Below are positions 26,483 to 59,058 of a stretch of DNA of 62,571 nt, in pieces. The DNA is from Pseudofrankia coriaricola (GTDB lineage Bacteria; Actinomycetota; Actinomycetes; Frankiales; Frankiaceae), in contig NZ_MBLO01000229.1 of assembly GCF_001854805.1 (NCBI RefSeq), forward strand, positions 1-62,571, written 5' to 3'. The notes under the pieces were generated by a model that saw only the letters and a program-made list of their open reading frames with translations, ran no database searches and had not been told where the DNA came from. Position 1 is the stretch's first letter. Every line of letters begins with the position of its first letter. The position numbers and the translations under genes are program-made.

Positions 26483-26536
26483 GGCCGCCGGGTATGCGAA
26501 GAAAGATCATTTTCGCATACCCTTTGGCCCTCCAGC
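26483..26536 (+). repeat. Dispersed hairpin element, copy A
   Basis: GGCCGCCG, then GGTATGCGAA (26491-26500), loop GAAAGATCATT, TTCGCATACC (26512-26521), then CTTTGGCCCTCCAGCC. A second copy at 59005-59058 keeps the flanks and loop while the stem bases are different but still pair. It lies 47 nt before the SDR start and could act as an RNA leader or be a REP-like element. Confidence 0.65.
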
Positions 26537-26567
26537 CGAGCAGTTCACGTTGGAAGGAAATGGCTCA

Positions 26568-27350
26568 ATGTTCACGCCCGTTGACGGTCGCACGGTCGTC
26601 GTCACCGGCGGCACCCGCGGAATCGGGAAAGGCATCGCCCGGGTGTTCGCTGGCGCCGGCGCGAACGTCGTCATCACCGGCCGCGACGCCGGCGTCGCCG
26701 AGGCGGCGGCGACGGAACTCGCCAAGGCAGCCGGCGGCACGGTCTCCTTCGTCGTCGCGGACGTGGCGTCGGCCTCCGACACCGCGCGGCTGGCCGCCGA
26801 GGTGCTGGAGCGCCACGGCGGCGTCGACGTCGTCTGCGCCAACGCCGGTATCTTCCCGAGCGCCCCGCTCGCGACGATGACCGAGGGCGACATCGACGAG
26901 ATGCTCGGCACGAACGTCAAGGGTGCGATCCTCACCGTCCAGGCGTTCCTGACGGCGCTGAAGGCGTCCGGCCATGGCCGGGTGATCCTCACGTCGTCGA
27001 TCACCGGCCCGCACACCGGGTATCCCGGCTGGTCGCACTACGGCGCGTCGAAGGCAGCCATCCTCGGCTTCATGCGGACGGCCGCGATCGAGCTCGCCCC
27101 GCACCGGGTCACTGTCAACGCGATCCTCCCCGGCAACATCGTCACGGAGGGCCTTGCCGACCTCGGCGAGGACTACCTGCGCTCGATGGAGGCGGCCATC
27201 CCGATGCGGCGGCTGGGCGAGGTCGAGGAGATCGGCCACGCCGTCCTGTTCCTCGCCACCGACGAGGCCGCCTACATCACCGGCCAGTCCCTGGTGGTCG
27301 ACGGCGGCCAGATCCTTCCCGAGTCGCCCGCCGCCCTGGAAGAGATCTGA
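26568..27350 (+). CDS. SDR-family oxidoreductase (FabG-like)
   Basis: 260 aa, classical SDR. Cofactor site [19 protein letters not shown], catalytic Ser in LTSSITG, YGASK (Tyr-x3-Lys) and [10 protein letters not shown]. Preference between NADH and NADPH is not clear. ATG 26568 follows GGAAGGAAATGGCTCA. It sits at the end of the amine locus, just before its GntR gene; it may reduce or oxidise a pathway intermediate, but nothing in the sequence fixes the substrate. Confidence 0.9.
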
Positions 27351-27472
27351 GCCCACCCTGGGGCGACGAGGCCCTTGCCGGCCAGACCTGGACCGATACC
27401 CGGCCGCTGGAGCGTCGGACCGAGACACCATGCCAGGTTCGCCAGGCACCGGCTTTCGGCCAGACTGGAGCG

Positions 27473-28252
27473 GTGGTGCTCCAGTTCGACCAATCCGGCT
27501 CGCTCGACCCGTCCAGCTCGCTCGGTCCGACCGCGGCCGGCGCCCGGCGCCGGCTGCGCCAGCTGGTAACCGACGGGACACGCGGCCCCGGGGAGCGCCT
27601 CGGCGGCGAGCGCGACCTCGCCGCCGCGCTCGGCGTCAGCCGCGCGACCCTGCGCCAGGCGCTGACGGCGCTGGAGCGGGAGGGTGTCATCCTGCGGGTC
27701 CGCGGCCGCGGAGGCGGCACCTTCGTCGCGCCTCGCAAGGTCGAACGCGACCTGTCCCGGATCGTCGGCGTCCCCGAACTGTTGCGCGCCCAGGGCTTCA
27801 CCGCCGGCTCGCAGGTGGTGAGCGCCGGTCTCGAGCCAGCCGACGTCGTCGTCGCGACGGCGCTGGCGCTCGCCCCCGGCGATCCCGTGGCGCGGATCGT
27901 GCGGATCCGCCTCGCCGACGGCGGGCCGATCTCCCTGGAGAACGCCTGCTTCCCCGCCTACCGCTTCCCCGGCCTGTTCAACCGGTCGCTGTCCGGCTCC
28001 CTTTACGAGCTGTTCGCCGACGAGTACGGCGTGCGCCCGGGTGAGGCCGTCGAACAGATCGAGGTCGTCGTCGCGGGCGACGAGGAGGCCGCGCTGCTGC
28101 GCACCCCCGCCGGGGCCGCGCTGCTCGCTTTGCAGCGCACGACCTACGACCCGGCGGGCGAGCCGTTCGAGTACTCGCACGACCTCTTCCGCGCCGACCG
28201 CATCCGCATCGTCGTCCGCTCCGCTGGCGCGACGGTCGCCACCACCCGCTGA
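27473..28252 (+). CDS. GntR-family regulator with UTRA domain (HutC/FarR type)
   Basis: 259 aa. The N-terminal winged helix is clear (GERLGGERDLAAALGVSRAT, then RQALTALEREGVI with wing RGRGGGTFV). The UTRA effector domain follows (VARIVRIRLADGGPISLENACFP, ALLALQRTTYDPAGEPFEYS). Translation may begin at GTG 27473 or GTG 27476; GGAG lies just upstream. UTRA proteins sense small ligands. As the last gene of the amine locus it is its likely regulator. Confidence 0.92.
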   Translation: MVLQFDQSGSLDPSSSLGPTAAGARRRLRQLVTDGTRGPGERLGGERDLAAALGVSRATLRQALTALEREGVILRVRGRGGGTFVAPRKVERDLSRIVGVPELLRAQGFTAGSQVVSAGLEPADVVVATALALAPGDPVARIVRIRLADGGPISLENACFPAYRFPGLFNRSLSGSLYELFADEYGVRPGEAVEQIEVVVAGDEEAALLRTPAGAALLALQRTTYDPAGEPFEYSHDLFRADRIRIVVRSAGATVATTR

Positions 28253-28263
28253 CCCAACTGGTA

Positions 28264-28336
28264 GATCACCGCCAAGGTGTCGTCGTAGTCGCGAATCTGG
28301 CCAGATCGCGACGGCGACAACACGTTGGCGGTGATC
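28264..28336. repeat. 73-bp near-perfect palindrome between convergent genes
   Basis: Outer arms GATCACCGCCAA (28264-28275) and TTGGCGGTGATC (28325-28336) pair perfectly. The inner arms pair with a few mismatches, and the centre ATCTGGCCAGAT (28295-28306) is itself a palindrome. The whole is symmetric about 28300. It lies between the GntR stop and the MFS stop, so a bidirectional terminator is the simplest reading. Confidence 0.7.
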
Positions 28337-28378
28337 ATGAATGCTGCTGGGCAGGGCGGGATCTACGCTGCCACGGCA

Positions 28379-29995
28379 CTACGTCGTGGGGGCGGCGGGT
28401 TCGGGCGTCGCCGCGACCGGGGCCTCGGTCTGGGCTGGGGTCTCGGTCTGGGCTGGGGCTGGGCGGGCGTCCGTCGGCGGGGCCTGCTGGGGGACGGCGG
28501 CGAAGTCCTTGCCGCGGATGAGCGCGAGGGCGAGGACGCCGCCGACGAGGCCGAGGATGCCGGCGGTGACGAACAGGTCGTTCAGCGCGCCGGCGAAGCT
28601 GGCGTGGATCGCCTCGGTGAGCGGGCCGCGGGCCGCCGGCGGCGCGGCGCCGATCGCCTGGCCCGCGGCGCCGGCGTGCACCGCGTCGGCGATCTGCCCG
28701 TCGCGGCCGGCCAGCTCCGGGATGCCGTCGAGGCGCCCGCTCAGGCCGTGCGCGAGGCGGCCGGTGAAGATCGAGCCGTAGGCGGCGGTGCCGACCGCGA
28801 TGCCGACCTGCCGGAACGTGGTGTTCACCCCCGATGCCATCCCGGACCGGAACGGGTGCACGACGCCGACCGCGGTGGAGGCCAGGGGCGGGTTCACCAG
28901 CCCGGATCCGACGCCGGCGACGACGAGACCGGGAATGAGGTGCGTCCAGCCGGAGCCCGCGCTGAGCCCCGCCATCAGCAGCAGCCCGGCGCCGACGAGC
29001 AGGAGGCCAGGACCGATGAGCCAGCGGACCGGCACGTGGGTCGAGAGCCGGCCGGCGACGGTGGAGACGACCATCGCGGTGGCGGACAGGATCAGCAGGC
29101 GCACGCCGGCCTGCAGCGCCGAGTAGCCCAGGTCGTTCTGCAGGTAGACCGTCAGGTAGAGCAGCATCGCGTACAGCGAGCCGTTCATCGCGAACGCGGC
29201 GACCGAGCCGCCGAGGAACGTCGGGATCCGCAGCAGCGACAGGTCGAACATCGGGTGCGCCACCCGCGTCTCGGCCACGACGAACGCGGCGAGGAGCAGC
29301 GCCGCCAGGACGAAACAGATGATCACGCCGCCGTCGCCCCAGCCGTCCTCGCTGGCTCGGATCAGCCCGTAGACGAGCGCGACCAGCCCGGACGTGAGCG
29401 TGGCGAACCCGGCCCAGTCCGGCCGGTGGGCGTGCGGGGCGCGCGACTCGGCGACCTTCCGCAGGGTGATCGCGATGGCGGCCACCCCGATCGGCAGGTT
29501 CACCCAGAAGATGCCGCGCCAGCTGACCCCGCTGGTGATCAGCCCGCCCAGGATGGGGCCGAGCGCCGTCGAGACGCCGGCGACCGCGCCCCACGCCCCG
29601 AACGCGACGCCGCGCTCCCGGCCGTGGAAGTTCATGGCGAGCAGCGCGAGCGAGGTGGCGAACATGATCGCCCCGCCGATGCCCTGCAGCGCGCGGGAGA
29701 CGATCAGCATCATCGGGGTCTGCGCGGCCGCGCACAGCGCGGACCCGGCGGTGAAGATCCCCAACCCGATGAGGAAGAGTCGCCGGCGGCCGTACCGGTC
29801 GGCCAGCGAGCCGGAGGTCAGCAGCAGCGCCGCGAGGGTGAGGGCGTAGGCGTCGACCACCCACTGCACGTCACTGAAGCTGGTGTGCAGCTCCCGCTGG
29901 ATGTCGGGCAGCGCCACCACGACGATCGTGATATCGAGCAGCAGCATGAACGTCGCCGCCAGCACCGCGACCAGCGTCCACCACTTGCGTTCCAT
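28379..29995 (-). CDS. DHA2-family MFS drug exporter (EmrB/QacA type)
   Basis: 538 aa with about 14 predicted membrane helices. Helix 1 motif LLLDITIVVVALPDIQ, motif A GSLADRYGRRR and motif C region GPILGGLI mark a drug:proton antiporter of the DHA2 group. The C-terminus is a Pro/Ala/Thr-rich tail. ATG 29995 is chosen because GGGAGG lies 5 nt upstream. Divergent from an Lrp/AsnC gene that may control it. The substrate is unknown. Confidence 0.93.
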   Translation of the reverse strand: MERKWWTLVAVLAATFMLLLDITIVVVALPDIQRELHTSFSDVQWVVDAYALTLAALLLTSGSLADRYGRRRLFLIGLGIFTAGSALCAAAQTPMMLIVSRALQGIGGAIMFATSLALLAMNFHGRERGVAFGAWGAVAGVSTALGPILGGLITSGVSWRGIFWVNLPIGVAAIAITLRKVAESRAPHAHRPDWAGFATLTSGLVALVYGLIRASEDGWGDGGVIICFVLAALLLAAFVVAETRVAHPMFDLSLLRIPTFLGGSVAAFAMNGSLYAMLLYLTVYLQNDLGYSALQAGVRLLILSATAMVVSTVAGRLSTHVPVRWLIGPGLLLVGAGLLLMAGLSAGSGWTHLIPGLVVAGVGSGLVNPPLASTAVGVVHPFRSGMASGVNTTFRQVGIAVGTAAYGSIFTGRLAHGLSGRLDGIPELAGRDGQIADAVHAGAAGQAIGAAPPAARGPLTEAIHASFAGALNDLFVTAGILGLVGGVLALALIRGKDFAAVPQQAPPTDARPAPAQTETPAQTEAPVAATPEPAAPTT

Positions 29996-30143
29996 CGAGC
30001 CTCCCATGTCCCGCGGCCGGGCGCGCTGCGCGGCCGGGACGACCAGGGCGGCGGGACCCGCCCCGCGGCGCCGGGTACCACTCTGCCCACCGCCATCCGA
30101 GGATCGGCCCCACAGCCTGGCCCGGTGTAGATTCCGGTCCGTG

Positions 30144-31232
30144 ATGGCCACTGTGATTCGGGAATCCGACAGGGCGCGGGCTCAACGCGTGGTTTCCGAC
30201 CCGGACGATCTGCGGATCATCCGCGCCCTGCAGCTGGCGCCGAGGGCCCCCTTCGCGCGGGTCGCCGCGGTGCTCGGCCTGCCCGAACGCACGGTCGCGC
30301 GGCGTTACCGGACGTTGCGGCGCGACGGGATCCTCCGGATCTTCGGCATCGTCAACCCGGTCACGGCCGGCGAGCACCCGTGGATGGTCCGGGTGCAGTG
30401 CCGGCCCGACAGCTCCGAGGCGCTGGCCGTCGCGCTGGCGCGGCGCGACGACATCGCCTGGGTGGTCCTCGCCGCGGCGGGCTCCGAGGTGACGTTCTCG
30501 ATCCGGTCCCAGTCCGCCGAGCAGCGTGACATACTCCTGACCCGTCGGCTGCCACGCGCGGCCCACGTCCTGAACGTCGAGGCGTCCGTCCTGCTGCACG
30601 CCTTCGTCGGCCACCACTCCGACGACTGGGGCGGGCTGGTCGGCAACCTCACCACCGACGAGACCGCCCAGCTCCAGGCCGCCGCGCCGGCCGAGGCAGC
30701 CCCAGTGGCGGCCGGGACTGTGCCGTTGGATCCCGCCGACGACGCGATCGCCGCGGTCCTGGCCCGTGACGGCCGCGCCAGCTACGCCGAGCTCGCCGCC
30801 GCGGCCGGGATCAGCGAGGGCCGCGCCACCCGCCGGCTCGCCGCGCTGGTTCAGAGCGGCACGGTGTTCTTCGACGTGGACCTGTCGATGTCCAGGCTTG
30901 GCTTCACCGCGCTCGCGCGCCTCTACATGCGGGTCAGCCCATCGCGGCTGCACGCCACGGGGAAGGCACTCGCGCATCTGCCGGAGGTCGCCTTCGCGGC
31001 GGCGCTGTCCGGCCCGCACAACCTGGTGGCCGTCGTCGTCTGCCGTGACCTGAGCGACCTCTACACCTTCACCACCAGCCGCATCGGCGCGCTCGACGGC
31101 GTACAGACGCTGGAGATCTCGCCCGTGTTCCGCACCATCAAGCAGGCCGGCGCCATGACCGGCGACGGCCGCCTCCTCGACCCCCTGCCCGGCGCCCGCC
31201 CGCCCTACCGGCCGGCCGGCCGCGAGGACTAG
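30144..31232 (+). CDS. Lrp/AsnC-family regulator, two-module form
   Basis: 362 aa, about twice the usual size. It has two winged-helix/RAM-like units: LRIIRALQLAPRAPFARVAA at the start and AAVLARDGRASYAELAAAAG near residue 205, each followed by an alpha-beta effector segment. Tandem Lrp proteins of this kind are common in actinomycetes. The start may be GTG 30141 or ATG 30144; TAGATT lies about 7 bp before, suggesting a leaderless transcript. Its stop overlaps that of the convergent DsbA gene at CTAG. Confidence 0.88.
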   Translation: MATVIRESDRARAQRVVSDPDDLRIIRALQLAPRAPFARVAAVLGLPERTVARRYRTLRRDGILRIFGIVNPVTAGEHPWMVRVQCRPDSSEALAVALARRDDIAWVVLAAAGSEVTFSIRSQSAEQRDILLTRRLPRAAHVLNVEASVLLHAFVGHHSDDWGGLVGNLTTDETAQLQAAAPAEAAPVAAGTVPLDPADDAIAAVLARDGRASYAELAAAAGISEGRATRRLAALVQSGTVFFDVDLSMSRLGFTALARLYMRVSPSRLHATGKALAHLPEVAFAAALSGPHNLVAVVVCRDLSDLYTFTTSRIGALDGVQTLEISPVFRTIKQAGAMTGDGRLLDPLPGARPPYRPAGRED

Positions 31233-31891
31233 GAGGCCGCCGCGGCGTCGACGGTGACCAGGTCCCAGGCCTTGGCCAGGGCCTTCTCGAAGGTCTCGCG
31301 GGGCTGGGCGCCGCTGATCGCGTACCTGGACTGGACGAGGAAGTAGGGGACGCCGCCGATGCCGAGCTGGCGGGCGCGAGCCTCGTCAGCGCGTACCTCG
31401 TCGGCGAACTCGCCGCCTGCGGCGACCTCGCGGACCCGGGCGCGGCCGAGGCCGAGGACGGCGACCGTGTCGGCGAGCACGTCGGGGTCGGCGAGGTTGG
31501 CGCCCCTGGTGAAGTAGGCGGCGAACAGCTCCTCAGCGGCCGCGGCCTGCAGGTCCTCCGTCGCGGCGTACCGCAGGATGCGGTGCGCGGCGAAGGTGTT
31601 GGTGGGTTTGAGGGCGGCGAAGTCGAAGGTCAGGCCGACGGTCGCCCCCATCGCCGAGACCCGCTCGTTCATCGCGATCGCCTGCTCGAGGGAGACGCTG
31701 TACTTGGTGGCGAGGAGCTGGTAGATACCGCCGGGGAACGTCGCCGGCGCGTCCGGGTCGAGCTCGAAGCTGTGCCAGCGGACCTCGACCTCGTCGGCGT
31801 GCTCGAAGGTGGCCAGCGCCCCCTCGAAGGACCGCTTGCCGATGTAGCAGAACGGGCACGCGACGTCCGACCAGATGTCGATCTCCAGCAT
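31229..31891 (-). CDS. FrnE-type DsbA-family oxidoreductase
   Basis: 220 aa, thioredoxin fold with a helical insertion. The active site is CPFC at residues 12-15 (SDVACPFCYIGK), and the cis-Pro loop is GIGGVPYFL. No signal peptide, so it is cytoplasmic, as expected for FrnE-like disulphide isomerases or 2-hydroxychromene-isomerase relatives. Some members serve polyketide pathways, but no polyketide genes are here. Convergent with the Lrp gene, overlapping by 4 bp. Confidence 0.92.
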   Translation of the reverse strand: MLEIDIWSDVACPFCYIGKRSFEGALATFEHADEVEVRWHSFELDPDAPATFPGGIYQLLATKYSVSLEQAIAMNERVSAMGATVGLTFDFAALKPTNTFAAHRILRYAATEDLQAAAAEELFAAYFTRGANLADPDVLADTVAVLGLGRARVREVAAGGEFADEVRADEARARQLGIGGVPYFLVQSRYAISGAQPRETFEKALAKAWDLVTVDAAAAS

Positions 31892-32090
31892 GGCCTCTCC
31901 TGTTCTCCCTGAAGCCAGAGGCCAGTCCGGCCCCTCGCCGGTTGACCGTTACAGCCGCGCATGTCTCTCAACAGGACCGCTCGACTCAACCACGACGGGT
32001 GACGGCGCATCGGCGCTGGCGCCAACGCACCCACCTCACCGACCCGGGATCAGCCGGGCCACCGCCATGCACGCCGGCCCGGAACCACCC

Positions 32091-32143
32091 GTCGGGCGCG
32101 GAGCGTCCGAAGGCGGTGCCCGGTGTCGGGCGCGGAGCGTCCG
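32091..32143 (+). repeat. Two 19-bp direct repeats
   Basis: GTCGGGCGCGGAGCGTCCG occurs at 32091-32109 and again at 32125-32143, period 34, just past the stop of the phosphofructokinase gene. Each contains a CGGAGCGTCCG-type dyad, so these may fold as weak hairpins. The rest of the 31892-32156 gap shows nothing further. Confidence 0.5.
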
Positions 32144-32156
32144 GCACGGGACCGCC

Positions 32157-33515: not shown

Positions 33516-34161
33516 CGTGCTCCGACCCTCTCCTCGCCCGCTCCGCCCGATGACCCCGGGCCACCTCACGGCTGATCTGATGACCGTGATCCCGCTAACC
33601 GTCATCCTGGCTGTCGTGGTCCTGGCTGTTCGGAGATCCTCGGCTGTTCCAGGACTTTCTCCGAGCCTACCGCCTCACCGCACCGCCAACCGGTCACTGC
33701 CGGAGCGCACCGGGTACCCCGCGTGAACGGCCACACAGCGTCACCGTCTGGCGTCGTTCGGCCGCGCCGAGAACACGACGGTCGGCCCGCCGGCCGTTAG
33801 GGAAAGTGATGCGCGAGATCGGCCGGACATGCCACGGTAACGAATAGCGGTATTCGCGGCCTCCCGTTGTGGAGTGGGTAGCGGTGGGAATGGGCCAATG
33901 GGTGCCGTGGCGGCGGTGAAGGTTCTCCGCGCCCGCCCTCGATGGAAGCCAAGATTCCTGGCCGTGGATGCCGGGGGCAGGTGAACTCACCCCACGTGGC
34001 GATAGGCGGCCTCGTCGACCCGCGCGATCGTCCAGCCTTCTCCGGGCTCACCTTCGCGAGGTGGTGGCACCCGGCGACCACGCCTTGAGTGATGGTTCGG
34101 ATGCATGCTGTGATGGTGTTGGCAGCCGAGCGCGGAGCGGTCCTGGTCCACGGAGGCTCCG
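33516..34161. other. 646-bp gap with no convincing gene
   Basis: Short reading frames exist on both strands but none has a good start plus coding-type bias. CGAATA-GCGG-TATTCG (33841-33856) is a small dyad in an AT-richer patch that could be a promoter site for the DoxX gene. No RNA gene recognised. Confidence 0.5.
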
Positions 34162-34755: not shown

Positions 34756-34800
34756 CGGCGCCCGGCTCTGCCGTGACGATGCCGGCGGGCGGCCCTCGTG

Positions 34801-34870
34801 GTGTCACAAGGCCGATCTCGGCGTCGCAAGGCCGACCTTGATGTCACCAGGCCGACCTTGATGTCGCAAA
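34801..34870. repeat. Tandem 20-bp repeats (3.5 copies)
   Basis: Units GTGTCACAAGGCCGATCTCG, GCGTCGCAAGGCCGACCTTG, ATGTCACCAGGCCGACCTTG and a half unit. Each includes a CAAGG-CCGA-CCTTG-like dyad. They lie between the convergent DoxX and permease stops and could give serial hairpins that end both transcripts. Confidence 0.65.
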
Positions 34871-34889
34871 ACGGTGCCCTGCCCAGGCC

Positions 34890-35831: not shown

Positions 35832-35889
35832 GGTCGCGCGCTCCTTGTGGTCGTCTCCCGCGGTGGTCTGGCGGCCGGCGGAAAATGGA

Positions 35890-37790: not shown

Positions 37791-37840
37791 GGCTGGCCAA
37801 AGGGGGCGCGACGATGGCGAAGCCGCGCGCCCTCGGAGGC
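37791..37840 (-). repeat. Dispersed hairpin element, copy B
   Basis: On the minus strand: GGGCGCG (37832-37826), a loop containing GGCTTCGCC, CGCGCCC (37810-37804), then CCCTTTGGCCAGCCCC. It shares the stem-then-CCTTTGGCC layout of copies at 26483 and 59005 but has a different loop. It fills the gap between the phosphatase and phosphoesterase genes. Confidence 0.55.
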
Positions 37841-38734
37841 CTAGGCGGGATCGTCGGCGACGAGCAGGGCTTCGGTCAGCGCGTCGAGCTGCTCGGCCGT
37901 CGCGCCGTGGGCGAGCAGGTAGCCGCGGGCGCCGCCGTGGCTCGCCCGAACCCGGTCCAGTGCCGCGCGGATCAGTTCCGGTGGGGCCTCCATGAGGTTG
38001 GCCGGCAGCTTGCGCGCGTCCCCTGCGCCGCTGGTGACCGCGGTGAGCCTGCGCAGGGCGGCGATCGCCTCGTCGTGCAGGAGCTCGGCGGTGAGCGCGT
38101 AGTCCCTCACGATCACCTCGTCCGGGACACCGAGCAGGTCCAGCACCAGCATGATCGTCAGACCGGTCCGGTCCTTGCCGGCGCTGCAGTGCACGATCGC
38201 CGGCAGCGCTTTCGGCTCGGCCAGCGCCAGCACGGCGGCGGTGAGCCTGTCACCCTTGTTGTCGAGGATGAAGGTATAGATCGCGCCGAGGTCCATCTCC
38301 AGGCCGGCCGCCTGCGCGGCCCGCACCCCCTCGGCCGCCGCCGCGCCCGTGCCCGGCGCGTTCTCGCCCGCCTCGCCCGTCCCCGCATCCGTGGCGGCGT
38401 CCGTCGCCGGCAGCGGCGAGCCGCTGGAGTACAGCGGCATCCGGACCGTGGTGATCGGCAGCCGGCCGAGCGCGTTCGGCTCGTGCGCGACCTCCGTGTC
38501 CTCGCGCAGGTCGACGACCGTGCGCACCTGGATCTGCGCGAGCGTCGCGCGGGCCTCGTCGCCGAGGCCGTGCATCGCGGCGGAGCGCAGCAGCGTACGG
38601 CGGCGGACCCGGCGCTCGCCTGCGGCCGGGTAGCCGCCGACGTCGCGCAGGTTCAGCGCTCCGGGCAGTCTGAGCACCCGGTCGGCGTCCGCCGGATTGT
38701 CGAGATCGGGGATCGCATCAAGTTCGAGAGTCAT
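37841..38734 (-). CDS. Tyrosine-type phosphatase (Y_phosphatase3 family)
   Basis: 297 aa. The CX5R phosphatase loop is AIVHCSAGKDRTGLT near residue 183. The N-terminal RDVGGYPAAGERRVRRRTLLRSA is characteristic of the bacterial MptpB-like group, which act on phosphotyrosine and phosphoinositides. An Ala/Gly-rich insertion lies at about residues 108-142. Its position in the importer operon suggests a role in removing phosphate from the imported molecule rather than in protein signalling (inference). Confidence 0.9.
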   Translation of the reverse strand: MTLELDAIPDLDNPADADRVLRLPGALNLRDVGGYPAAGERRVRRRTLLRSAAMHGLGDEARATLAQIQVRTVVDLREDTEVAHEPNALGRLPITTVRMPLYSSGSPLPATDAATDAGTGEAGENAPGTGAAAAEGVRAAQAAGLEMDLGAIYTFILDNKGDRLTAAVLALAEPKALPAIVHCSAGKDRTGLTIMLVLDLLGVPDEVIVRDYALTAELLHDEAIAALRRLTAVTSGAGDARKLPANLMEAPPELIRAALDRVRASHGGARGYLLAHGATAEQLDALTEALLVADDPA

Positions 38735-42028: not shown

Positions 42029-42976
42029 CTAGTCCGCCCGGTCTGCCCGGTCCGGGCTGACGATCATGCTGTCGAGCAGTTCCCGCTGCTGCTCGAGCTG
42101 GTGCGCGAGCGACGTGCCTGGCGCGTCCTCGCCGCGCAGCATGACCGCCTGCTGCAGCGCGGTGATCAACAGCAGCGACGGTACCCGGCTGCCGATCGTG
42201 TCGCTGCCCAGCGGCCAGTGCGGCGAGCCCACGACGAGGAGCGCGTCGGCGAGTGCTGGCAGCGGGCCACCGGCGTAGCTGGTGATGGCGACGATCGACG
42301 CGCCGCGGCCGCGCGCGATCTCGGCCACCCGGATCGTCAGGTCGTTCACGCCACTGCCGGTGACCAGCAGGCAGACGTCGCCGGCGGACAGCCCGTTCGC
42401 CGCCAGCTGCTGCACGAGCGCGTCCGCCGGGGCCTCGACCGCCCGGCCGGCCGCCAGGAACCGCAGCGCCGCGTCCTGGGCGACCGGCGACGAACCGCCG
42501 TTGCCGACGAGGAGCAGCCGTCGCGCGCCGATGAGCAGGTCGACCGCGGTGGCGAGCTGGGCCCGGCCGAGGCCGGCCAACGAGTCCGCGAGCACGGCGG
42601 CGGCCGCCTGGAAGACCGTGTCGACGATCAGCTCCGGCGGGTCGCCGGCGCGCGGCTCGCGTAGGCCGCGGCGACCGCCACCGGGCGCGCCAGCGCCAGC
42701 GTCCTCGGCATCGCGGGCGAAGACGCCGGCTTCCCTGGCGAACGCCACCCGCAGCTGTTGGAAGCCGCGGAAGCCCATCGACTGGCAGGCGCGCACCACC
42801 GTCGCCGCCGACACGTCGGCCGCCGCCGCCAGCTGCGCGGCAGACCACTCGACCACGTCGTCCGAGCGCAGTAGGCATACCTCCGCGACGCGCCGCTCGC
42901 TCGGGATGAGCGTCGGCAGCGCTGCCCGGATGCCGGCGAACAGGCTGCCGGTGCGCGGCGGCGATGAGCTGACCAT
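42029..42976 (-). CDS. RpiR/MurR-family regulator with SIS domain
   Basis: 315 aa. The N-terminal helix-turn-helix reads SERRVAEVCLL, AADVSAATVVRACQSMGFRG. The SIS sugar-phosphate-binding domain follows: RLLLVGNGGSSPVAQDAALR, LLVTGSGVNDLTI and SIVAITSYAGGPL. Such regulators sense phosphosugars, in line with the phosphatase-bearing importer operon that it precedes. ATG 42976 is preferred; a TTG at 43015 would extend it. Confidence 0.9.
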   Translation of the reverse strand: MVSSSPPRTGSLFAGIRAALPTLIPSERRVAEVCLLRSDDVVEWSAAQLAAAADVSAATVVRACQSMGFRGFQQLRVAFAREAGVFARDAEDAGAGAPGGGRRGLREPRAGDPPELIVDTVFQAAAAVLADSLAGLGRAQLATAVDLLIGARRLLLVGNGGSSPVAQDAALRFLAAGRAVEAPADALVQQLAANGLSAGDVCLLVTGSGVNDLTIRVAEIARGRGASIVAITSYAGGPLPALADALLVVGSPHWPLGSDTIGSRVPSLLLITALQQAVMLRGEDAPGTSLAHQLEQQRELLDSMIVSPDRADRAD

Positions 42977-50354: not shown

Positions 50355-50483
50355 TAGGGCGGTCGGCCCGGGCGGGAATCGGGCACCTGCCCGATGCCCT
50401 CACCCCCGTCCGACGGTGATCGTAGAAAGCGGCACACGAAGACGGGGACACGCGCCGAGGGGCGCGAGAGGACGTGACAGACG

Positions 50484-50702: not shown

Positions 50703-50787
50703 AAGTAATGCTGAAAGTGATGAGGACTGCCGGCCGGTGGCCGAAAACCGGGTGGAGTTGTCGCAGCTGTCAGCCAGACTAGGAGTC

Positions 50788-53700: not shown

Positions 53701-53886
53701 CAGATCGCCGCGGCGCTGTTCATCAGCCGCAAGACCGCGAGCACCCACGTCTCGAACATCCTCGGCAAACTGGGTGTCACCAGCCGCGGTGAGGCCGCCG
53801 CCGTCGCCCACCGCCTGCGGCTGTTCGACGACACCGACGTCGCTGATGCCGCCATCCCCGACCACCGTCCCGTCGCGCGCCGCTAG
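50788..53886 (+). CDS. Large LuxR-family (MalT/LAL type) ATPase regulator
   Basis: 1032 aa. FVGRAAELARLEGALRRA leads into an AAA/STAND ATPase with Walker A GGEAGVGKTRLV (about residue 37) and Walker B LFVIEDLHWAD (about 160). A long TPR-like helical sensor follows, and the C-terminus carries a LuxR helix-turn-helix: LTARELDVLRLVAAG, NPQIAAALFISRKTASTHVS. ATG 50788 puts FVGR at residue 9, as usual in the family; AGGAG lies 2 nt upstream and a GTG at 50737 is an alternative. Likely activates a target operon on ligand binding; target not evident. Confidence 0.92.
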   Translation: MTQLASSVFVGRAAELARLEGALRRAADGDGAGVIIGGEAGVGKTRLVEEVAARAAAAGHTVLAGGCVELEGDGLPLAPVIEALRGLARRIGPEALARLAGGRRDELARLLPEVAGPAAIPAAAGDDAQGNGIGNGIGRLFDLVLGVVEALSAEQPVLFVIEDLHWADHSTRALAAFLLRNLRGCRATLVLTYRADGVGPGHPLRTFLAESERLRWMSGSERLRWVERIELARFGRAEVAELVAAVLGEAPPDDLVDAVMARSDGNAFFVEELVCAAGAGGVDTISPTLRDALLARIEALPAATRHLLRVAAAGGQRVEHQLLAAVLGLPEEQLWDALRAAVATGVLMVAPADDAYCFRHALTRGALRHEALPGELSHLHRRYAQALEADPGLVGGGARAAAAVAYHWYAACEHPRALPALLTAARAAACAYAFAEALRHYERALASWDEVPDAADRAGLDHLGVLEAAITAAKMAGELRRGLDLANRARTEAALLGDPVRLALALTEQSFLLRMLGHSDGVEEAQEAVRLMPAEPPTPTRAKVLVSLGKALSMVPRRAAALQAIEEALAVARATGARRVEGTALMSTACLASAWTLPEDARLGRAIAHELGDDDLLLSSYTNESDTWLGGCRFDEAIAAGHEGLRLARRLGQERTHGLLLAGNVIEALLGAGRWEEAEKLLAETTELAPMGIHALFLEQLRGDLALARGQLDEAGTALAAAEGTLAYRYLGSQYTMPLLRLRIDLDLRRGEPGALTDGVADALAAVRAVEAFDFTDVVRYAAPLLATAMGATAEAAGVARALRAQDDLRHALEAAGRVAALAAEMPFERAVSGEACRAVIAGELARAEGRPDPEPWASAAKAWSALGVPYQAARARYRRAETLLAVGDRAAAGDELRAAAAAAAALGAHLLRRDLRLLAAQGRLALPGPESGQAPAEDECEAATADGPPLGLTARELDVLRLVAAGSTNPQIAAALFISRKTASTHVSNILGKLGVTSRGEAAAVAHRLRLFDDTDVADAAIPDHRPVARR

Positions 53887-54166
53887 TCCTCTCACGACGA
53901 CCCTGGTCCTGCTCGGCTTTGCCTGCGCGTTGCTGGCGTCGCTGGCGTTCGAGAGCCGGCTGGTCATTGGCTCGCAGCCTGCCCGCAACCAGATCCCGGC
54001 ACTGGCGGCGCTGGCCGCCGGCGCCGCGGTCGGGCTCGGGCTGAGCGTCGTTGTGCTTCCGACGACGCTGGTCGGCCTGAGCTGTGCGTTGCTCGCGGGC
54101 GCGACGACCGCCTTCGGTTTGATCACCGGGCTGGGACCGGTGAGCCCAGAGAGGGGAGCTCGACTC
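53846..54166 (+). pseudogene. Membrane-protein-like reading frame without its own stop
   Basis: From ATG 53846, within the end of the LuxR-type gene, the frame codes for hydrophobic segments (TTTLVLLGFACALLASLAFES; LGLSVVVLPTTLVGLSCALL) with good third-position GC until about 54150. Coding character is then lost and the frame runs on antisense to the cas6-like gene without a nearby stop. It may be a truncated or frameshifted two- to three-helix protein. Right boundary approximate. Confidence 0.35.
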
Positions 54167-54168
54167 CG

Positions 54169-54237
54169 ATGGCCACGGCCATGGCCTCGCCGGCCGCCGC
54201 GCAGACGGCCACCGCGGACTCCGAGAACCCGTCCTAA
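54169..54237 (+). CDS. 22-codon ORF with a ribosome-binding site
   Basis: ATG 54169 is preceded by GAGAGGGGAG and encodes MATAMASPAAAQTATADSENP plus Ser, stop TAA. It could be a small peptide or the surviving 5' end of a lost gene, as it ends 100 bp from the cas6-like stop in a disturbed region. Confidence 0.3.
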   Translation: MATAMASPAAAQTATADSENPS

Positions 54238-54337
54238 ACTCCCCTGGGCACGTAGGGCAGCCGGCTGCCGCGAGTGCATTGCGGTACCTCGCGGCCGACG
54301 TCAGGCACCTCACCATCCCGGATACCGGGGTGGCCGG

Positions 54338-55261
54338 TTACCGCCTGACGGTCCTGGCGGCGGGGGAGGAGACCGGGGCGCGGCCCGAGCGCCGGCTCGG
54401 TGGGACGGCGACCGGCGCCATCTGCCGCGGCGCGCGCACGACGTCGACGACATCGACAACGTCGACGTCCACCGCGCCGAAGCCGTGGGCGGTGCGCTCT
54501 CCTACGCCGGCGAACGCGGCGAACCGGGCGAGCGCGGCGAACATCGTCGCGGTGTAGTCGGACGTGGCCGCGAGCAGGCGCAGGTCGGCCTGCCCGACGA
54601 ATCCCACCTGGCGCAGCCCGTGGCCGAGCTCGACCTCGGAGCTCGCGCCCCAGACGCCGTCGAGGAAGACCGCCTCGACGAGGGCCCGCGCGTCGTCGGC
54701 GCCGATCCGCAGCGGCCCGGGCGCATAGGTGTTCCAGCGGGCGAGCAGCCCGCCGATGGCCAGTGCCGGGTCGGGCAGCGGCAGGTCGCGCCCGTCCCGG
54801 GAGAAGAACGTCGGAGTGTTCATCGTCAGCCGGGCGCCGCGGGCCGGCCGGCCCTGCGCGAGCTCGGCGTAGGAGTACCGGTGCAGGTCGGCGCCGACGA
54901 CCGGGAGTACCTGGGAGCCGAACCGGACCGTGTCCGGCTGCCACCCGGGCAGCGGCGCGTCGTCCGCGAGCCAGCCCAGCCGCCAGGTCGTCACGGCGCC
55001 GCCGCGGCCCGGCGTGCCGCACGTGGACGGCTCCCACGCGCCGGCCAGGCCGGCATCGCCGCGCCCGCCGAGCCCGGTGCCGCCGAGCCCGGTGGCGTTG
55101 GGTCCGGCGTCGGGCACCAGCGGGCCGACGCTGAACGGCCTGGCCTCGTCGGCACGCGCCCCGTCGGCGGGGTCGCAGATGGCGCTCGCCGCGGCAAGCA
55201 GCCAGCGAGGGGCCGCATCCGGAATGGCGCCCGCCATTCGGACGAGAAGTATCGACGGCAT
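54338..55261 (-). CDS. Cas6-like CRISPR RAMP endoribonuclease, solitary
   Basis: 307 aa. The C-terminal half matches the Cas6 pattern: LTMNTPTFFSRDG, LPLPDPALAIGGLLARWNTY, VGFVGQADLRL, then FAALARFAAFAGVGERTAHG, the glycine-rich loop of the second ferredoxin-like fold. The N-terminal half shows RPFSVGPLVP and SYAELAQGR, also usual for Cas6. No catalytic His is evident near residues 25-50, so cleavage activity is uncertain. A 35-residue basic tail follows the fold. ATG 55261 has GGAGG 5 nt upstream. No repeat array and no other cas gene are in the window. Confidence 0.75.
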   Translation of the reverse strand: MPSILLVRMAGAIPDAAPRWLLAAASAICDPADGARADEARPFSVGPLVPDAGPNATGLGGTGLGGRGDAGLAGAWEPSTCGTPGRGGAVTTWRLGWLADDAPLPGWQPDTVRFGSQVLPVVGADLHRYSYAELAQGRPARGARLTMNTPTFFSRDGRDLPLPDPALAIGGLLARWNTYAPGPLRIGADDARALVEAVFLDGVWGASSEVELGHGLRQVGFVGQADLRLLAATSDYTATMFAALARFAAFAGVGERTAHGFGAVDVDVVDVVDVVRAPRQMAPVAVPPSRRSGRAPVSSPAARTVRR

Positions 55262-55532
55262 CCGAGCCTCCGCCATCATCCCGCGCGGTGGGCAACCAGC
55301 CGAGCACAGTCAGCTGCCCTGCAGCGGGGAGTGTAGCCGACGGCGCCGTCGACAATGTGGCCTGGGTCACTCTGGTGTTACGTCGAAACCGATTTCCACC
55401 GGGGAACGGCTGCTTCGTCCGCTATTGCGCCGCAGGTCGCGGTCGAGTGACCCTCTCGGGAGGGTATCTCGGGAAATTTTCGGCCCGACGGGGGATGTCC
55501 CACCGCGAGGCATCTGCCGTGCGAAGGTGCCG

Positions 55533-55928
55533 TTAATAGTGGATGACCGACTCGCGGCTGAGGAGATCGGCGTAGTCGGCGGGCAGTTGGCCGGCGACAT
55601 CCTCGAACTCCGACGGCGAGACGCTGGCCTTGAGCGCCGCGACGACGGCGCGGGCATGGCGGCGGGCCTTGGGCTCCGTGCAGGCGTCGCCTTCGAGCTG
55701 GGCGACCCGGCGATAGAACTCCTGGACGTCGAACCGCTCGCCGCCGCCCCTGGGTGGCAGCGCCTCGGCGAACGCCGCCGGCAGCTGGGAGGCGAGGTTC
55801 CGCGTCTCTCCGCCGGAGATCCGTTCGCCGAGCACGGTAAGGGTGGCGCGCATCGCCGTCTCCGCCTGCCGCGCGGACTCGAATCCGCCGGTGACGCGGA
55901 TCGCGGACACAAGCTGGTCCTGCTTCAT
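55533..55928 (-). CDS. DUF2267-family protein
   Basis: 131 aa. Pattern SARQAETAMRATLTVLGERI, ETRNLASQLPAAFAEAL, FDVQEFYRRVA, then ARAVVAALKASVSPSEFEDV and QLPADYADLL: the two-repeat helical DUF2267 fold. Function unknown; often linked to stress or envelope loci in actinomycetes. GAGAGGG precedes ATG 55928. Confidence 0.85.
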   Translation of the reverse strand: MKQDQLVSAIRVTGGFESARQAETAMRATLTVLGERISGGETRNLASQLPAAFAEALPPRGGGERFDVQEFYRRVAQLEGDACTEPKARRHARAVVAALKASVSPSEFEDVAGQLPADYADLLSRESVIHY

Positions 55929-56222
55929 CTCGGCTGCCCTCTCACTCGTGACCCGGAGCGGTCTCGGGCCGGACCGGCTTGAGACCGACAACCCCTGCCC
56001 GTCCCCAGTCCGCCACGGACAAAACGCCAGGTGACGGCCCCATGGTGTCCACCGTCGCGCGAGGGACGTACGACGCGAGGGGCGCACGGGTGGCGGAGAG
56101 TCATGAGGCAGGCGGCCGTGGCGGTGGGCCGAGGCGGACGGCGACCGATCCCCGGACGGCGACCGACCGCCGGACGGCGCGCTCCTGCCTGGCTGGACGC
56201 GGTGGCCTCTGATCCGGGGGCA
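55929..56222. other. Gap without a gene before the broken permease
   Basis: About 290 nt with no convincing coding frame. The right end meets a 14-bp palindrome and the permease remnant. Confidence 0.45.
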
Positions 56223-56236
56223 GATTACATGTAATC
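56223..56236. promoter_or_regulatory. GATTACATGTAATC perfect palindrome
   Basis: A 14-bp perfect AT-rich palindrome in GC-rich surroundings. It looks like a regulator site whose target gene has been lost: the permease remnant begins about 50 bp downstream. Confidence 0.5.
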
Positions 56237-56275
56237 GACGGAGGGCCGCTCTCTCGTCTCTCGGATCATCTCGTC

Positions 56276-56539
56276 GTTGCAGACAGTTTCACCCTGCGCG
56301 TCCCCGGCAGCCTCGGCCATCTGTTCGCCGGCGCGAAGATCGCCGTCATGATGGCCATGATCGGCGCGATCGTCTCCGAGTTCACCGGCACCAACAAGGG
56401 CCTCGGCGCGGTCGTCGTCCAGGCCACCACGTACATGAACCTCGTGCAGATGTAGGGCGCCATCTTCGTCTCGGCCTTCGTGGCCCTGTTCCTGCTCGGC
56501 CTGGTGAACCTGGCGGAAAGGCTCGTCGTCCGCTGGTGA
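56276..56539 (+). pseudogene. Remnant of an SsuC/TauC-type ABC permease
   Basis: The frame reads FTLRVPGSLGHLFAGAKIAV, IGAIVSEFTGTNKGLG, then TTYMNLVQM, a TAG stop (56453-56455), and continues in the same frame GAIFVSAFVALFLLGLVNLAE to a natural TGA at 56537-56539. This is the C-terminal third of a nitrate/sulfonate/riboflavin-type permease, with the EAA loop intact. The N-terminal two thirds are missing and the TAG breaks the rest. Partner genes are absent. Confidence 0.85.
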
Positions 56540-56893
56540 CGCGGGCGCGCCCGGCGGCGTTCCCGACGCGAGGGGCGCCTGCGGTGGAGGAGGTCAGCCC
56601 GGAGAGCGGGGGCTGCGTGGGGTAGGAGGCAGTCCGGGTCGCGGCGAGTCCAGCGCTGCCGCGCGGCCGGCGGTCGTCCTCCCCGCCGGCTCCCGTCCGC
56701 GGCGGCGCGGAAACACGACTCATCCATTGCCCTCTCCCGCTGCCCCGTTGTGCTTCGGTCCCTGCGCGCCCCGGCTTCGGTGAGCTCGCAAAAAATCCGC
56801 AGGGATCAAGGAACCCGGTCACGTTGACCTCGGCCGGTCGGGCCGCCGACGCGGTTTATGCGGCCGTGTGCATTCTTGCCGGCCGTACCTGGG
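56540..56893. other. Gap between permease remnant and Rpn-like copy 2
   Basis: No coding frame or RNA structure is convincing here. It separates two convergent partial units in the plasticity zone. Confidence 0.45.
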
Positions 56894-57760
56894 CTATTCG
56901 TGGATGACGTCGTCGATGGTGGTGGCGGTGACCGCGCGGCGCAACCAGGTGTCGAACTGGTCCAGGTCCGTGCAGGACCGGATCCGATCGCGGACATCTT
57001 CAGTGACGTGCACCCCACGGGCATCGAGTGCGGTCAGCAACATTCGCGCCGCACTCTCGGCGTGGGCGCGGGCGGCGGTCTCGCCGAGCAGCTTGCTGCG
57101 GTATGGACGACCAAGGGCGCTATTCATATGCGTCTCCCAACGATCCCAGAGCGCCGCTGGCAACCCAGCCAGCACGATCTCATGATATAAGGGACCCTTC
57201 CTCGGACCGAGCGCTCGCAGTGCCTCCGTCAGCGCGGGAAAGGACGCCTCGATGCCGGCGTCCCCACCGTGGCAGAGCACGGAGAACATCGCCAACGCCG
57301 GCTCGACCCGCGCCCGCTCGACGTCGACGACCAGCGGCACGTCCCCCGGCGTGAAGACGAGCGGGCGCAGATGCAGGCTGACGCCCTCCGACTCGAACAT
57401 TTCCCGGTAGCGGCGGGCAACCGCCGCGCTCGGGCAGTAGACCAGCAGCGCAGCGTTGACCTCCAGCTCGGCCTCCAGGTGCGCGACGTAGGTCTTCAGG
57501 GTCCAGCGCTTGCCCGGGTCCCAGGCGCGCTGGACCTCCAACACGACCGACATCAGCGACCGGTCGGCGGCATCGCACAGCAGCATCATCCCGTCGGCGC
57601 GGTAGGTGCTGGGCACCAGTTTCCGGACCTCGGTGGGCTGCGGCCGGGCGTGATGATAGCCGGACACCTTGACGTCGAAAAGTTTCTCCAGCAACCAGAC
57701 GAGGACCTCCGGATTCTGTTCGGCCAGCTCCAGCGGCGACTCGTGTTCCCCGCTCGGCAT
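56894..57760 (-). CDS. Rpn-like PD-(D/E)XK-fold protein, copy 2
   Basis: 288 aa, paralogue of the gene at 18132-19076. Shared features: MPSGEHES start, KLVPSTYRADGMMLL (Asp), VVLEVQ (Glu-x-Gln), LKTYVAHLEAELEV (Lys), LVFTPGDVPLV, SVLCHGGD and the end SCTDLDQFDTWLRRAV. It lacks the EG-repeat segment of copy 1 and ends properly at DDVIHE. Upstream DNA (57761-57860) is AT-rich. ATG 57760 is chosen by matching copy 1; in-frame upstream ATGs exist. Nuclease activity is an inference from the fold pattern. Confidence 0.65.
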   Translation of the reverse strand: MPSGEHESPLELAEQNPEVLVWLLEKLFDVKVSGYHHARPQPTEVRKLVPSTYRADGMMLLCDAADRSLMSVVLEVQRAWDPGKRWTLKTYVAHLEAELEVNAALLVYCPSAAVARRYREMFESEGVSLHLRPLVFTPGDVPLVVDVERARVEPALAMFSVLCHGGDAGIEASFPALTEALRALGPRKGPLYHEIVLAGLPAALWDRWETHMNSALGRPYRSKLLGETAARAHAESAARMLLTALDARGVHVTEDVRDRIRSCTDLDQFDTWLRRAVTATTIDDVIHE

Positions 57761-57989
57761 GCTGCCAACCATAAAGAACGCGGACAGGAAATAGCAAACA
57801 CGTAAGAAGCCCATTAATGCCGATTCAATAACCGGACTGAGTTACGCTCGTCTACCCGCTCTCGGGCAAGAAATCGGCCCGAAGAGTCTCCCCGTGAGCC
57901 TTCCGGCGGCTAGAGGCGGCCATGGGCGCGAAGTAGCGAGACGGCGTGCGGTGTTCGCGACGCGAGGTGGCGACGGCGGGCCTGGGCGT

Positions 57990-58976
57990 TCAGGCCGTGA
58001 GGTAGCCGTTGCGGACGAGGTAGGCGACCAGCGCGTCCGCGGCCTGCCCGGCGTCCGTCGGGCCGATGATCGTGGGCGGATCGTGGGCGACGAGGGCGCC
58101 GGTGAGCGCCAGCAGCCGGTCCCGCGGGGTCGCCCCCGCCGGCGGAGGCACTACCCGGGCCCGCGGGCGGTAGGCACGGACGTCCACGACCTCGACCGCG
58201 CCCACCGCGGGCCGCGTCGGGCGGGCGGCGGGGACCGGCGCGTCGCCGGCGGCGAGCAGGGCTGGCAGCGCGGCACGCCGCAGCCGCAGCCCGGCGGCCT
58301 CGGCCGAGCAGACCGCCGGGGTCGGCACACGCAGCCGCTCGCGGCGGCCGCCGTCGAGCCGGCGCTCGGCGAGCAGCCAGCCGTCGTCCGTCGGCGTCAG
58401 GCTGACCAGGCCGAGGGCCTGCGCGGCGCCGAGAGCGTGCGCGAGCTGCGCGGGCAGCGCGCCGGTGCCGCGGTCGGGGGAAAGGTCGCCGCAGAGCACC
58501 AGCGTCGGTTCGCCGACCGTCCGGATCGCGTCGACGAGGACCTCGGCGAGCGCGCGCGTGTCGCCCGCGAGGTCGGCGAGGTAGGCCGCGCGCGGCCCGA
58601 ACGGCTCCGGGTCGACCGCCGACGCGGCGTTGACCGCCGAGGCGGCACCGGGAGCGGCGCCGTGGCCGTCGGCCTCGTCGTGCGGCGGCCAGGCGACGCG
58701 CAGGACCGCAGCGCCCAGCGCCGCCGCGGCGCGCAGCGGGCCCTCGACGATAGGCGAGCCGGCGGCGACCGCGAGCACCCGCCCTGACCAGGCCCGCGCG
58801 ATCGCCAGCGCGCGCTCCAGCGCCGCCTCGTCCGCCGCCGAGAGCCCGGCGCCGTGCGCCGAGCGTGTCACCACGCCGGTCAGTGGATCGACCTCGGGCC
58901 GCAGATCGGTGACCCGCAGGCACACGACGACCAGCGGCCCGCCCCCACGGGCCCCGTCACCTGTCGCGTTCGTCAT
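57990..58976 (-). CDS. Electron transfer flavoprotein beta subunit-like protein (FixA/EtfB)
   Basis: 328 aa, longer than the usual 250-260. It follows the EtfB pattern: VVVCLRVTDLRPEVDP at the start, LSAADEAALERALAIA, EPTLVLCGDLSPDRGTGALPAQLAHALG and GLVSL. It forms a heterodimer with EtfA and carries electrons to the FixC/FixX quinone-reductase branch. AAGGAGG lies 6 nt before ATG 58976. Ala-rich insertions near residues 100-115 and 240-270 are unusual. A divergent, actinobacterial-type ETF, possibly linked to mycofactocin-dependent dehydrogenases. Confidence 0.82.
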   Translation of the reverse strand: MTNATGDGARGGGPLVVVCLRVTDLRPEVDPLTGVVTRSAHGAGLSAADEAALERALAIARAWSGRVLAVAAGSPIVEGPLRAAAALGAAVLRVAWPPHDEADGHGAAPGAASAVNAASAVDPEPFGPRAAYLADLAGDTRALAEVLVDAIRTVGEPTLVLCGDLSPDRGTGALPAQLAHALGAAQALGLVSLTPTDDGWLLAERRLDGGRRERLRVPTPAVCSAEAAGLRLRRAALPALLAAGDAPVPAARPTRPAVGAVEVVDVRAYRPRARVVPPPAGATPRDRLLALTGALVAHDPPTIIGPTDAGQAADALVAYLVRNGYLTA

Positions 58977-59004
58977 CGCCGTCCTCCTTTTGACTTCGGG
59001 ACAA

Positions 59005-59058
59005 GGGCCGCCGGGCGCGCGAAGGAAGATCATTATCGCGCGCCCTTTGGCCCTCAGC
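59005..59058 (+). repeat. Dispersed hairpin element, copy C
   Basis: GGCCGCC, then GGGCGCGCGA (59013-59022), loop AGGAAGATCATTA, TCGCGCGCCC (59036-59045), then TTTGGCCCTCAGCC. Compared with copy A, almost every stem pair is replaced by another Watson-Crick pair, while loop and flanks are nearly identical. It lies between fixX and etfB, antisense to them. Confidence 0.65.

What the first reader, a model, noticed from the sequence alone, without database searches (positions are those of the whole stretch)
26483..59058. Dispersed hairpin element with compensatory stem changes and conserved loop
Copies at 26483-26536 and 59005-59058 share GGCCGCCG before the hairpin, the loop core GAAGATCATT or GAAAGATCATT, and TTTGGCCCTC-AGCC after it. 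Their 10-bp stems are almost wholly different yet both pair perfectly. A third copy (37791-37840, minus strand) keeps the stem plus CCTTTGGCC with another loop, and a degenerate one lies at 25185-25250. Covariation of this sort implies selection on the structure. All four are intergenic, and orientation relative to genes is mixed, which favours a REP-like mobile or DNA/RNA-structural element over a cis riboswitch.
Basis: seen in the sequence. Interest (0 to 1): 0.75.

Follow-up and report, generated by a model that had tools for sequence, protein, structure and literature searches.

The report
Jumping hairpins that target gene ends
The repeated hairpins are copies of a tiny (69-base) mobile DNA element of Frankia-like soil bacteria that has spread recently, often landing exactly on the stop signal of genes and leaving it intact; the enzyme that moves it is not yet known.

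Summary
The hairpins are real and belong to a large dispersed family. In the window's genome (G000, a Pseudofrankia) a strict family motif occurs 199 times against 1 for the reversed control. The full unit is 69 bp: 16-nt leader, 47-nt hairpin, 6-nt tail, usually CTCTAG. Sixteen of 42 single 69-bp copies are identical. Relatives show contiguous empty sites at 6 of the 8 sites aligned, so it moves. It inserts directly 3' of CCC-N-Y-Y-A-G, with nothing conserved downstream; its tail also obeys YYAG, which explains tandem arrays. Twenty-five of 50 insertions sit exactly on a stop codon (12 same strand, 13 opposite), and a stop is kept either way. Stem covariation exceeds controls. In the genomes sampled the family is confined to Frankiaceae. 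The REP/RAYT reading fails its main test in Pseudofrankia: no Y1 transposase in G000-G006, though some copy-bearing genomes of other genera have one. Best explanation: a non-autonomous element moved in trans, probably through a folded single strand nicked at YYAG; the enzyme is unknown. Closest analogues: REPs and mycobacterial MIRUs. The proposed copy at 25185-25250 is not real.

The parts
26467..26535 (+). Copy 1: full 69-bp unit (leader 26467-26482, hairpin 26483-26529, tail CTCCAG 26530-26535), 3' of ...CGTCCAG; between an APH-family gene (25320-26429 +) and an SDR gene (26568-27350 +)
   Evidence: sequence; CM hit 75.3 bits (used in the model); DNA fold z -4.19; genes
58990..59057 (+). 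Copy 2: older unit (leader about 58990-59005, hairpin 59006-59052, tail CTCAG 59053-59057); the tail contains the stop codon (TGA on the minus strand, 59054-59056) of the Fer4 gene 59054-59422 (-), in a run of ETF, Fer4 and FAD-oxidoreductase genes
   Evidence: sequence; CM hit 72.4 bits (used in the model); gene families
37795..37841 (-). Copy 3: distant relative with another loop (GGCTTCGCCATCGT, like AGCTTCGCCATAA in L133/L148 of G016); starts in the G of the TAG stop of gene 37841-38734 (-)
   Evidence: CM hit 30.3 bits, E 2e-5; loop likeness by eye; its own fold is not better than shuffles (z -0.29 DNA, -1.30 RNA)

Best explanation
The hairpins are copies of a tiny non-autonomous mobile element of Frankiaceae. 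SHOWN: the youngest subfamily is a 69-bp unit, leader (16 nt) + imperfect hairpin GGCC-GCC-11 bp-loop-TTT-GGCC (47 nt) + tail (6 nt, ending YYAG). It is present in many identical copies at unrelated sites, and relatives have uninterrupted empty sites. Insertion is directly 3' of CCC-N-Y-Y-A-G, with an exact 69-bp gain, no deletion, no regular target duplication (apart from a 2-bp AG ambiguity) and no downstream requirement. The tail is itself a YYAG site, so insertion next to an existing copy would give the head-to-tail arrays seen. Half of the insertions fall exactly on stop codons. If the gene lies on the same strand, its TAG stop is left untouched; if on the opposite strand, the element's own CTAG tail supplies a TAG stop. 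Two of the three forward frames are open, and in two checked cases near a gene start the element simply adds 23 codons in frame. INFERRED: an enzyme supplied in trans recognises the folded single-stranded hairpin and nicks 3' of YYAG at the left junction, the right junction and the target, i.e. peel-and-paste logic as in IS200/IS605. In Pseudofrankia this enzyme is not a recognisable Y1 transposase; it remains unidentified.
For: Copy number: GAAGATCATT 124 vs 0 control; TCGCNNNNCCTTTGGCC 199 vs 1; 24 of 55 matches are 100% identical over 71 bp (40 of 190 candidates scored); 16 of 42 single 69-bp copies identical, 28 of 42 within one mismatch. Empty sites: of 12 sites queried, 8 were aligned with 12 relative loci; 6 of the 12 loci (6 different sites) have no gap within 6 bases of the junction, and 4 of these carry YYAG. 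Target: 50 sites, A 47/50, G 50/50, exact YYAG in 41/50, C at -7 in 47/50; right flank at most 0.23 bits at any of 12 positions; tail YYAG in 49/50. Stops: 25 of 50 in exact register (12 same strand, 13 opposite), one more 3 bp away, against 4 of 46 motif-matched background sites, p 1.3e-5; among non-genic sites 25 of 46 against 4 of 20, p 0.015. Structure: 53 two-sided changes vs 14.3 shuffled on 48 hairpins, 62 vs 21.0 on 33 from several genera. No Y1 in G000-G006. Two 23-codon in-frame insertions read open, one with an orthologue lacking it.
Against: No enzyme was found, so the single-strand mechanism rests only on insertion logic shared with IS200/IS605. A possible guide pairing (leader CTGGGG with tail or target) was near independence over 68 units. 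Nine of 50 left flanks are not exact YYAG. Six of the 12 relative loci were gapped or diverged at the junction. In the covariation tests the number of pairs with two-sided change was not beyond shuffles (5 vs 4.0, 65 of 500) and the number of further pair types not (15 vs 13.9, 136 of 500). The stop-codon excess may come from selection removing other insertions. Genes were called by my own codon-usage caller. Strand bias on the G006 chromosome, which lagging-strand insertion would predict, was not significant (10+/2- vs 7+/8-, p 0.11, 27 listed hits, origin not fixed).
Confidence: 0.62

Rival explanations
1. A REP element mobilised by a RAYT (TnpA-REP, Y1 HUH transposase).
For: Short imperfect hairpin, mostly extragenic, high copy number, conserved loop and internal bulge; nicking-type insertion logic. 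Y1 genes exist in some copy-bearing genomes outside Pseudofrankia: G024, G021 and G015 one each, G016 four, G014 three.
Against: No PF01797 match in G000-G006 although G000 copies are young. Of 17 Y1-positive family genomes, 12 have no strict-pattern copy. In 10 fetched Y1 loci (about 1.5 kb each side where the contig allowed; the G015 gene was not fetched) the hairpin pattern hit once, weakly, without the family's frame (L178). No GT[AG]G at the foot in the consensus (feature as given in passages of PMC6006769 and PMC8266576). Arrays are direct.
Confidence: 0.09
2. A unit moved as a small double-stranded circle by a serine or tyrosine recombinase with an AG core: circle ...CTCT-AG-TGATCC... 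recombines with CCCGYY-AG targets.
For: The AG on both sides, the exact 69-bp gain and tandem arrays fit a circle with a 2-bp core equally well.
Against: Only the left half of the target is constrained, whereas a recombinase site would normally need both halves; it gives no role to the covarying hairpin.
Confidence: 0.2
3. An RNA-borne insertion (group II-intron-like reverse splicing or reverse transcription) of a transcribed 3'-UTR hairpin.
For: Precise insertion with only upstream sequence recognised resembles intron IBS recognition (recalled); RNA fold -33.3 kcal/mol, z -3.63.
Against: Equal use of both gene strands (12 vs 13); no GUGYG/AY intron ends (recalled consensus); no Rfam match at a copy in the window or in four loci. 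Reverse transcriptases were not searched for.
Confidence: 0.08
4. A selected cis-acting RNA or DNA structure (terminator, mRNA 3' stabiliser, protein-binding site) multiplied by selection, not by its own mobility.
For: Covariation, position at gene ends, strong fold.
Against: Identical leader, hairpin and tail at unrelated sites, empty sites in sister species, constrained insertion motif, no consistent orientation, no U-tract in the consensus. Functions may be acquired later.
Confidence: 0.07

Closest known systems
REP sequences / REPtrons (TnpA-REP, RAYT)
   Same: Short imperfect hairpin with an internal bulge, conserved loop, mostly extragenic, many copies, non-autonomous.
   Different: No Y1 transposase found in G000-G006, no GT[AG]G foot in the consensus, constant leader and tail in the young subfamily, insertion 3' of YYAG, direct tandem arrays, stop codons as a main site.
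MIRU (mycobacterial interspersed repetitive units)
   Same: Short, apparently mobile repeats of actinobacteria that insert at gene-boundary codons with little damage; a 2025 review (PMC12548453, one passage read) says they insert at start codons so that an internal ORF is coupled to the gene. Their tandem arrays are recalled.
   Different: Here stop codons are the site, on either strand, and the element has a covarying hairpin. No MIRU sequence was compared.
IS200/IS605 ends and their non-autonomous derivatives (PATE type, recalled)
   Same: Insertion 3' of a short motif, no regular target duplication, subterminal hairpin, right end cut at a similar motif.
   Different: Y1 gene not found in Pseudofrankia; one hairpin in the short form (some copies have two); guide-target pairing not supported.
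Rickettsia palindromic elements
   Same: Palindromic elements that can insert in frame in coding genes (PMC10969869, passages).
   Different: About 150 bp there; here in-frame insertion is the exception (two checked cases) and gene ends are common.

Membership tests
REP/RAYT (REPtron) | Y1 HUH transposase (RAYT) in the genome | tested here: not met
   PF01797: 0 in G000-G006; 17 of 35 family genomes positive, including copy-bearing G024, G021, G015, G016, G014; 5 of 14 controls
REP/RAYT (REPtron) | GTAG or GTGG at the 5' foot of the hairpin | tested here: not met
   foot is GACAAC in the consensus and varies in other subfamilies
REP/RAYT (REPtron) | imperfect palindrome, extragenic, high copy number | tested here: met
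IS200/IS605-type non-autonomous element | insertion 3' of a short motif without target duplication | tested here: met
IS200/IS605-type non-autonomous element | TnpA (Y1) available in the cell | tested here: not met
   not found in G000-G006
IS91-type (Y2) element | Y2 transposase present | tested here: inconclusive
   PF04986 0 of 35 genomes, but no control rang
Classical MITE | terminal inverted repeats and target site duplication | tested here: not met
   exact 69-bp gain; left 5 nt equals tail 5 nt in 3 of 50, shuffled mean 1.0, reached in 5.8% of shuffles; the unit's two ends are not inverted repeats of each other (sequence)
MIRU | sequence homology to MIRU | not tested
   no MIRU sequence was fetched or recalled
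Described Rfam RNA family | match to an Rfam model | tested here: not met
   no match at the copies in the window (gathering scores); loose search of 4 loci gave none at a copy

The most novel reading that the evidence does not exclude
A new class of mobile hairpin that moves without a Y1 transposase. One nicking rule, YYAG^, defines left end, right end and target, and a stop codon is kept or rebuilt at either end, so that it can land on gene ends of either strand without breaking the gene. Frankiaceae would then have their own REP-like system with an undescribed mobilising enzyme.
Probability: 0.4. Interest if true: 0.78.

Novelty: new variant of a known kind. Interest (0 to 1): 0.62.

Why it matters
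REP-like repeats are usually explained by RAYTs. This family has spread recently in a genome where no RAYT was found, with a clear target rule and empty sites, so a mobiliser can be sought directly. The stop-keeping ends are a clean example of how a small repeat can fill a gene-dense genome at little cost. The arrays also seem to break the assembly and could serve as strain markers in Pseudofrankia.

Tried and rejected
RAYT/Y1 link: rejected for Pseudofrankia. IS91/Y2: no hit, but the control did not ring, so weak. Linked transposase: 148 of 158 distinct proteins within 600 bp of a hairpin (10 left out by the size limit; only 60-900 aa considered) showed none among the 25 families listed of 170. 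Autonomous copy with the same left end: of 72 exact left ends I inspected 11 in 8 loci that looked odd; 10 lead into a hairpin within about 200 bp, one is truncated, and none has a gene inside. The other 61 were not each inspected for this. Loop-leader pseudoknot (GATCA with TGATC): dropped, other leaders keep the loop without the complement. Leader-tail guide pairing: near independence in 68 units. Replication-strand bias: not significant. Right end as target duplication: 3 of 50. Phage or plasmid carriage: none at the sensitivity used; 9 viral hits to a loose motif do not form the hairpin. The left-flank table (63 sites) includes units inside arrays and is replaced (50 sites, arrays merged). 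In one search one of 14 opposite-strand stops (L043) is 3 bp off; the p values counted it and are replaced. Two of the 20 sites labelled intergenic (L114, L117) are the in-frame cases. A weaker window hit at 12389-12429 (22.1 bits, E 0.003) was not followed.

Rows dropped: A2 uses 48 of 59 distinct hairpins (11 with another left arm or length left out). A3 uses 25 of 29 hairpins from relatives plus 8 from G000, window included. Insertion-site tables use the 50 sites of the TGATCC subfamily with at least 300 bp on both sides, not all copies. One search aligned 12 of the 30 loci brought.
Full report
Observation. The hairpins at 26483-26529 and 59006-59052 are real; a covariance model to which both contributed scores them 75.3 and 72.4 bits. 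The minus-strand copy at 37795-37841 scores 30.3 bits (the wrong strand of copy 1 scores 29.9), and nothing scores at 25185-25250. Independent support comes from the genome: GAAGATCATT occurs 124 times against 0 for the reversed string, AAAGATCATT 16 against 0, and TCGCNNNNCCTTTGGCC 199 times against 1. The stems of the two window copies differ in 3 of 10 pairs, all two-sided, not 'almost wholly'.

Source. The window lies in G000, 11.2 Mb in 280 contigs. An exact loop pattern found one named record, Pseudofrankia asymbiotica NRRL B-16386, whose contig has the length of G005:C121, so G005 is taken to be that species and G000 a congener. Pseudofrankia belongs to Frankiaceae; 'Frankiaceae' below means the tool's family f1.

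Unit. The youngest subfamily is 69 bp: TGATCCTGGGGACAAC, then the hairpin GGCC-GCC-GGGTGTGCGAA-GGAAGATCATT-TTCGCACACCC-TTT-GGCC, then CTCTAG. Sixteen of 42 single 69-bp copies are identical and 28 of 42 differ by at most one base. Some copies carry an extra hairpin between leader and main hairpin (L041, L042, L044, L045). Tandem copies repeat every 69, 66 or 63 bp in many loci, with other spacings elsewhere. At least nine contigs of G000 end inside a 69-bp unit or array.

Mobility. Twelve insertion sites of G000 were joined in a script without the element and sought in seven congeners. I aligned 12 of the 30 loci returned, covering 8 of the 12 sites. Six loci, each for a different site (L180, L188, L195, L201, L208, L209), have no gap within 6 bases of the junction. 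Four of these (L180, L188, L208, L209) carry YYAG there; the other two read CTAT and CCCG. The remaining 6 loci (for sites L060 and L033) are gapped or diverged at the junction. The element cut out was 69 bp at each site, so the gain is exactly 69 bp.

Target. Over 50 sites (arrays merged) the majority bases before the element are C-C-C-G-T-T-A-G: C 47 of 50 at -7, T or C 48 of 50 at -4 and 46 of 50 at -3, A 47 of 50, G 50 of 50; exact YYAG in 41 of 50. The 12 bases after the element show at most 0.23 bits. The tail ends in YYAG in 49 of 50. Thus left junction, right end and target obey one rule, and a copy's own tail is a target, which accounts for arrays (slippage or unequal crossing-over would also lengthen them).

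Stop codons. With genes called by codon usage on the joined empty sites, 12 of 50 insertions follow directly on a TAG stop of a same-strand gene. Thirteen fall in exact register on the stop of an opposite-strand gene, one more is 3 bp off, 20 are labelled intergenic (two of these are the in-frame cases below) and 4 lie inside called genes. Motif-matched sites elsewhere in these genomes lie on such stops in 4 of 46 (strict) or 20 of 418 (looser) cases. The excess holds among non-genic sites alone (25 of 46 against 4 of 20, p 0.015; against 20 of 117, p 4e-6). In the opposite-strand case the element's CTAG tail supplies the stop. Window copies 2 and 3 also touch stop codons in these two ways. 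Two forward frames of the unit are open. In L036 and L037 the element adds VILGTTAAGCAKEDHFRTPFGPL near the start of an open frame, and the G006 orthologue of L037 reads straight through. Whether the stop preference is targeting or selection is open.

Structure. On 48 distinct hairpins 95.7% of cells pair; 53 cells have two-sided changes against 14.3 in shuffles, and slid controls give 1-8. On 33 hairpins from several genera it is 62 against 21.0, and two pairs show all four Watson-Crick types. Not every measure is beyond shuffles: pairs with two-sided change (5 vs 4.0) and further pair types (15 vs 13.9) are not. The changes concentrate in four adjacent pairs between constant GG and GCGA. Shuffles do not remove relatedness, and template switching within palindromes could contribute, so selection on the fold is likely, not proven.

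Distribution. Own genome included, 17 of 58 genomes match model R1, all in family f1 (at most 106 candidates scored per genome). With R2, 10 of 296 class genomes match, all f1 (21 candidates scored per genome). With the strict pattern, 12 of 35 family genomes match (199, 82, 42, 23, 20, 17, 9, 5, 5, 4, 4, 1 hits). In a class sample of 393 genomes, 23 of the 358 outside the family have 1-2 hits, no more than the reversed control gives. Other genera carry the same frame with other loops, such as CCATAA, CATGAT or a short A-rich loop.

Mobiliser. PF01797 is absent from G000-G006 and present in 17 of 35 family genomes. Twelve of those 17 have no strict-pattern copy, but five do: G024 (82 hits), G015 (23) and G021 (9) with one Y1 gene each, G016 with four and G014 with three. 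So a Y1 enzyme is excluded only for Pseudofrankia. PF04986 gave nothing anywhere, controls included. Neighbouring genes are ordinary metabolism, transport and regulation as far as listed. An enzyme in trans is inferred, not shown.

Literature. No title or abstract start in these listings names such an element in Frankia or Pseudofrankia; many subscription papers are not in the library. Passages only were seen in PMC12306157, PMC8049555, PMC12548453, PMC10969869, PMC6006769 and PMC8266576. The features of REPs and of IS200/IS605 guides are taken from the last two, and the MIRU comparison from PMC12548453.

Verdict. A real, recently active, non-autonomous mobile hairpin family of Frankiaceae. 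It works like a REP or MIRU but, in Pseudofrankia, fails two defining tests for a REP; MIRU membership was not tested.

Noticed in passing
G000 contig ends (C255, C265, C40, C106, C57, C264, C135, C191, C56): Contigs end inside 69-bp units or arrays, so arrays probably break the assembly and copy number is underestimated.
   Followed up: partly
L041, L042, L044, L045, L076, L102: Longer variants with a second hairpin (CCAGATCGCTTCGCGATCCGG type) between leader and main hairpin; L041 is expanded further.
   Followed up: partly
L036 and L037, around position 1502: In-frame insertion of 23 codons near the start of an SDR-like and another open frame.
   Followed up: yes
L150 4629-6627 and L154 9671-11882: Similar ABC-transporter locus of G005 and G000 flanked by inverted old copies in both species, with different array sizes: long-lived copies.
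   Followed up: partly
L162 456-522 (-): Rfam Transposase-2 RNA (RF03015, 71.4 bits) in the family genome G016.
   Followed up: no
window 57990-60786 (-): ETF, ferredoxin-like and FAD-oxidoreductase genes in a row, as in a fix-type operon, with copy 2 between the ferredoxin-like and ETF genes.
   Followed up: partly
window 42268-42366 (+): ARAGORN predicts a 99-nt tRNA-Arg with anticodon gcg inside a called gene; probably a false call.
   Followed up: no
window 12389-12429 (+): Weak match to the hairpin model (22.1 bits, E 0.003), possibly a fourth, very diverged copy.
   Followed up: no
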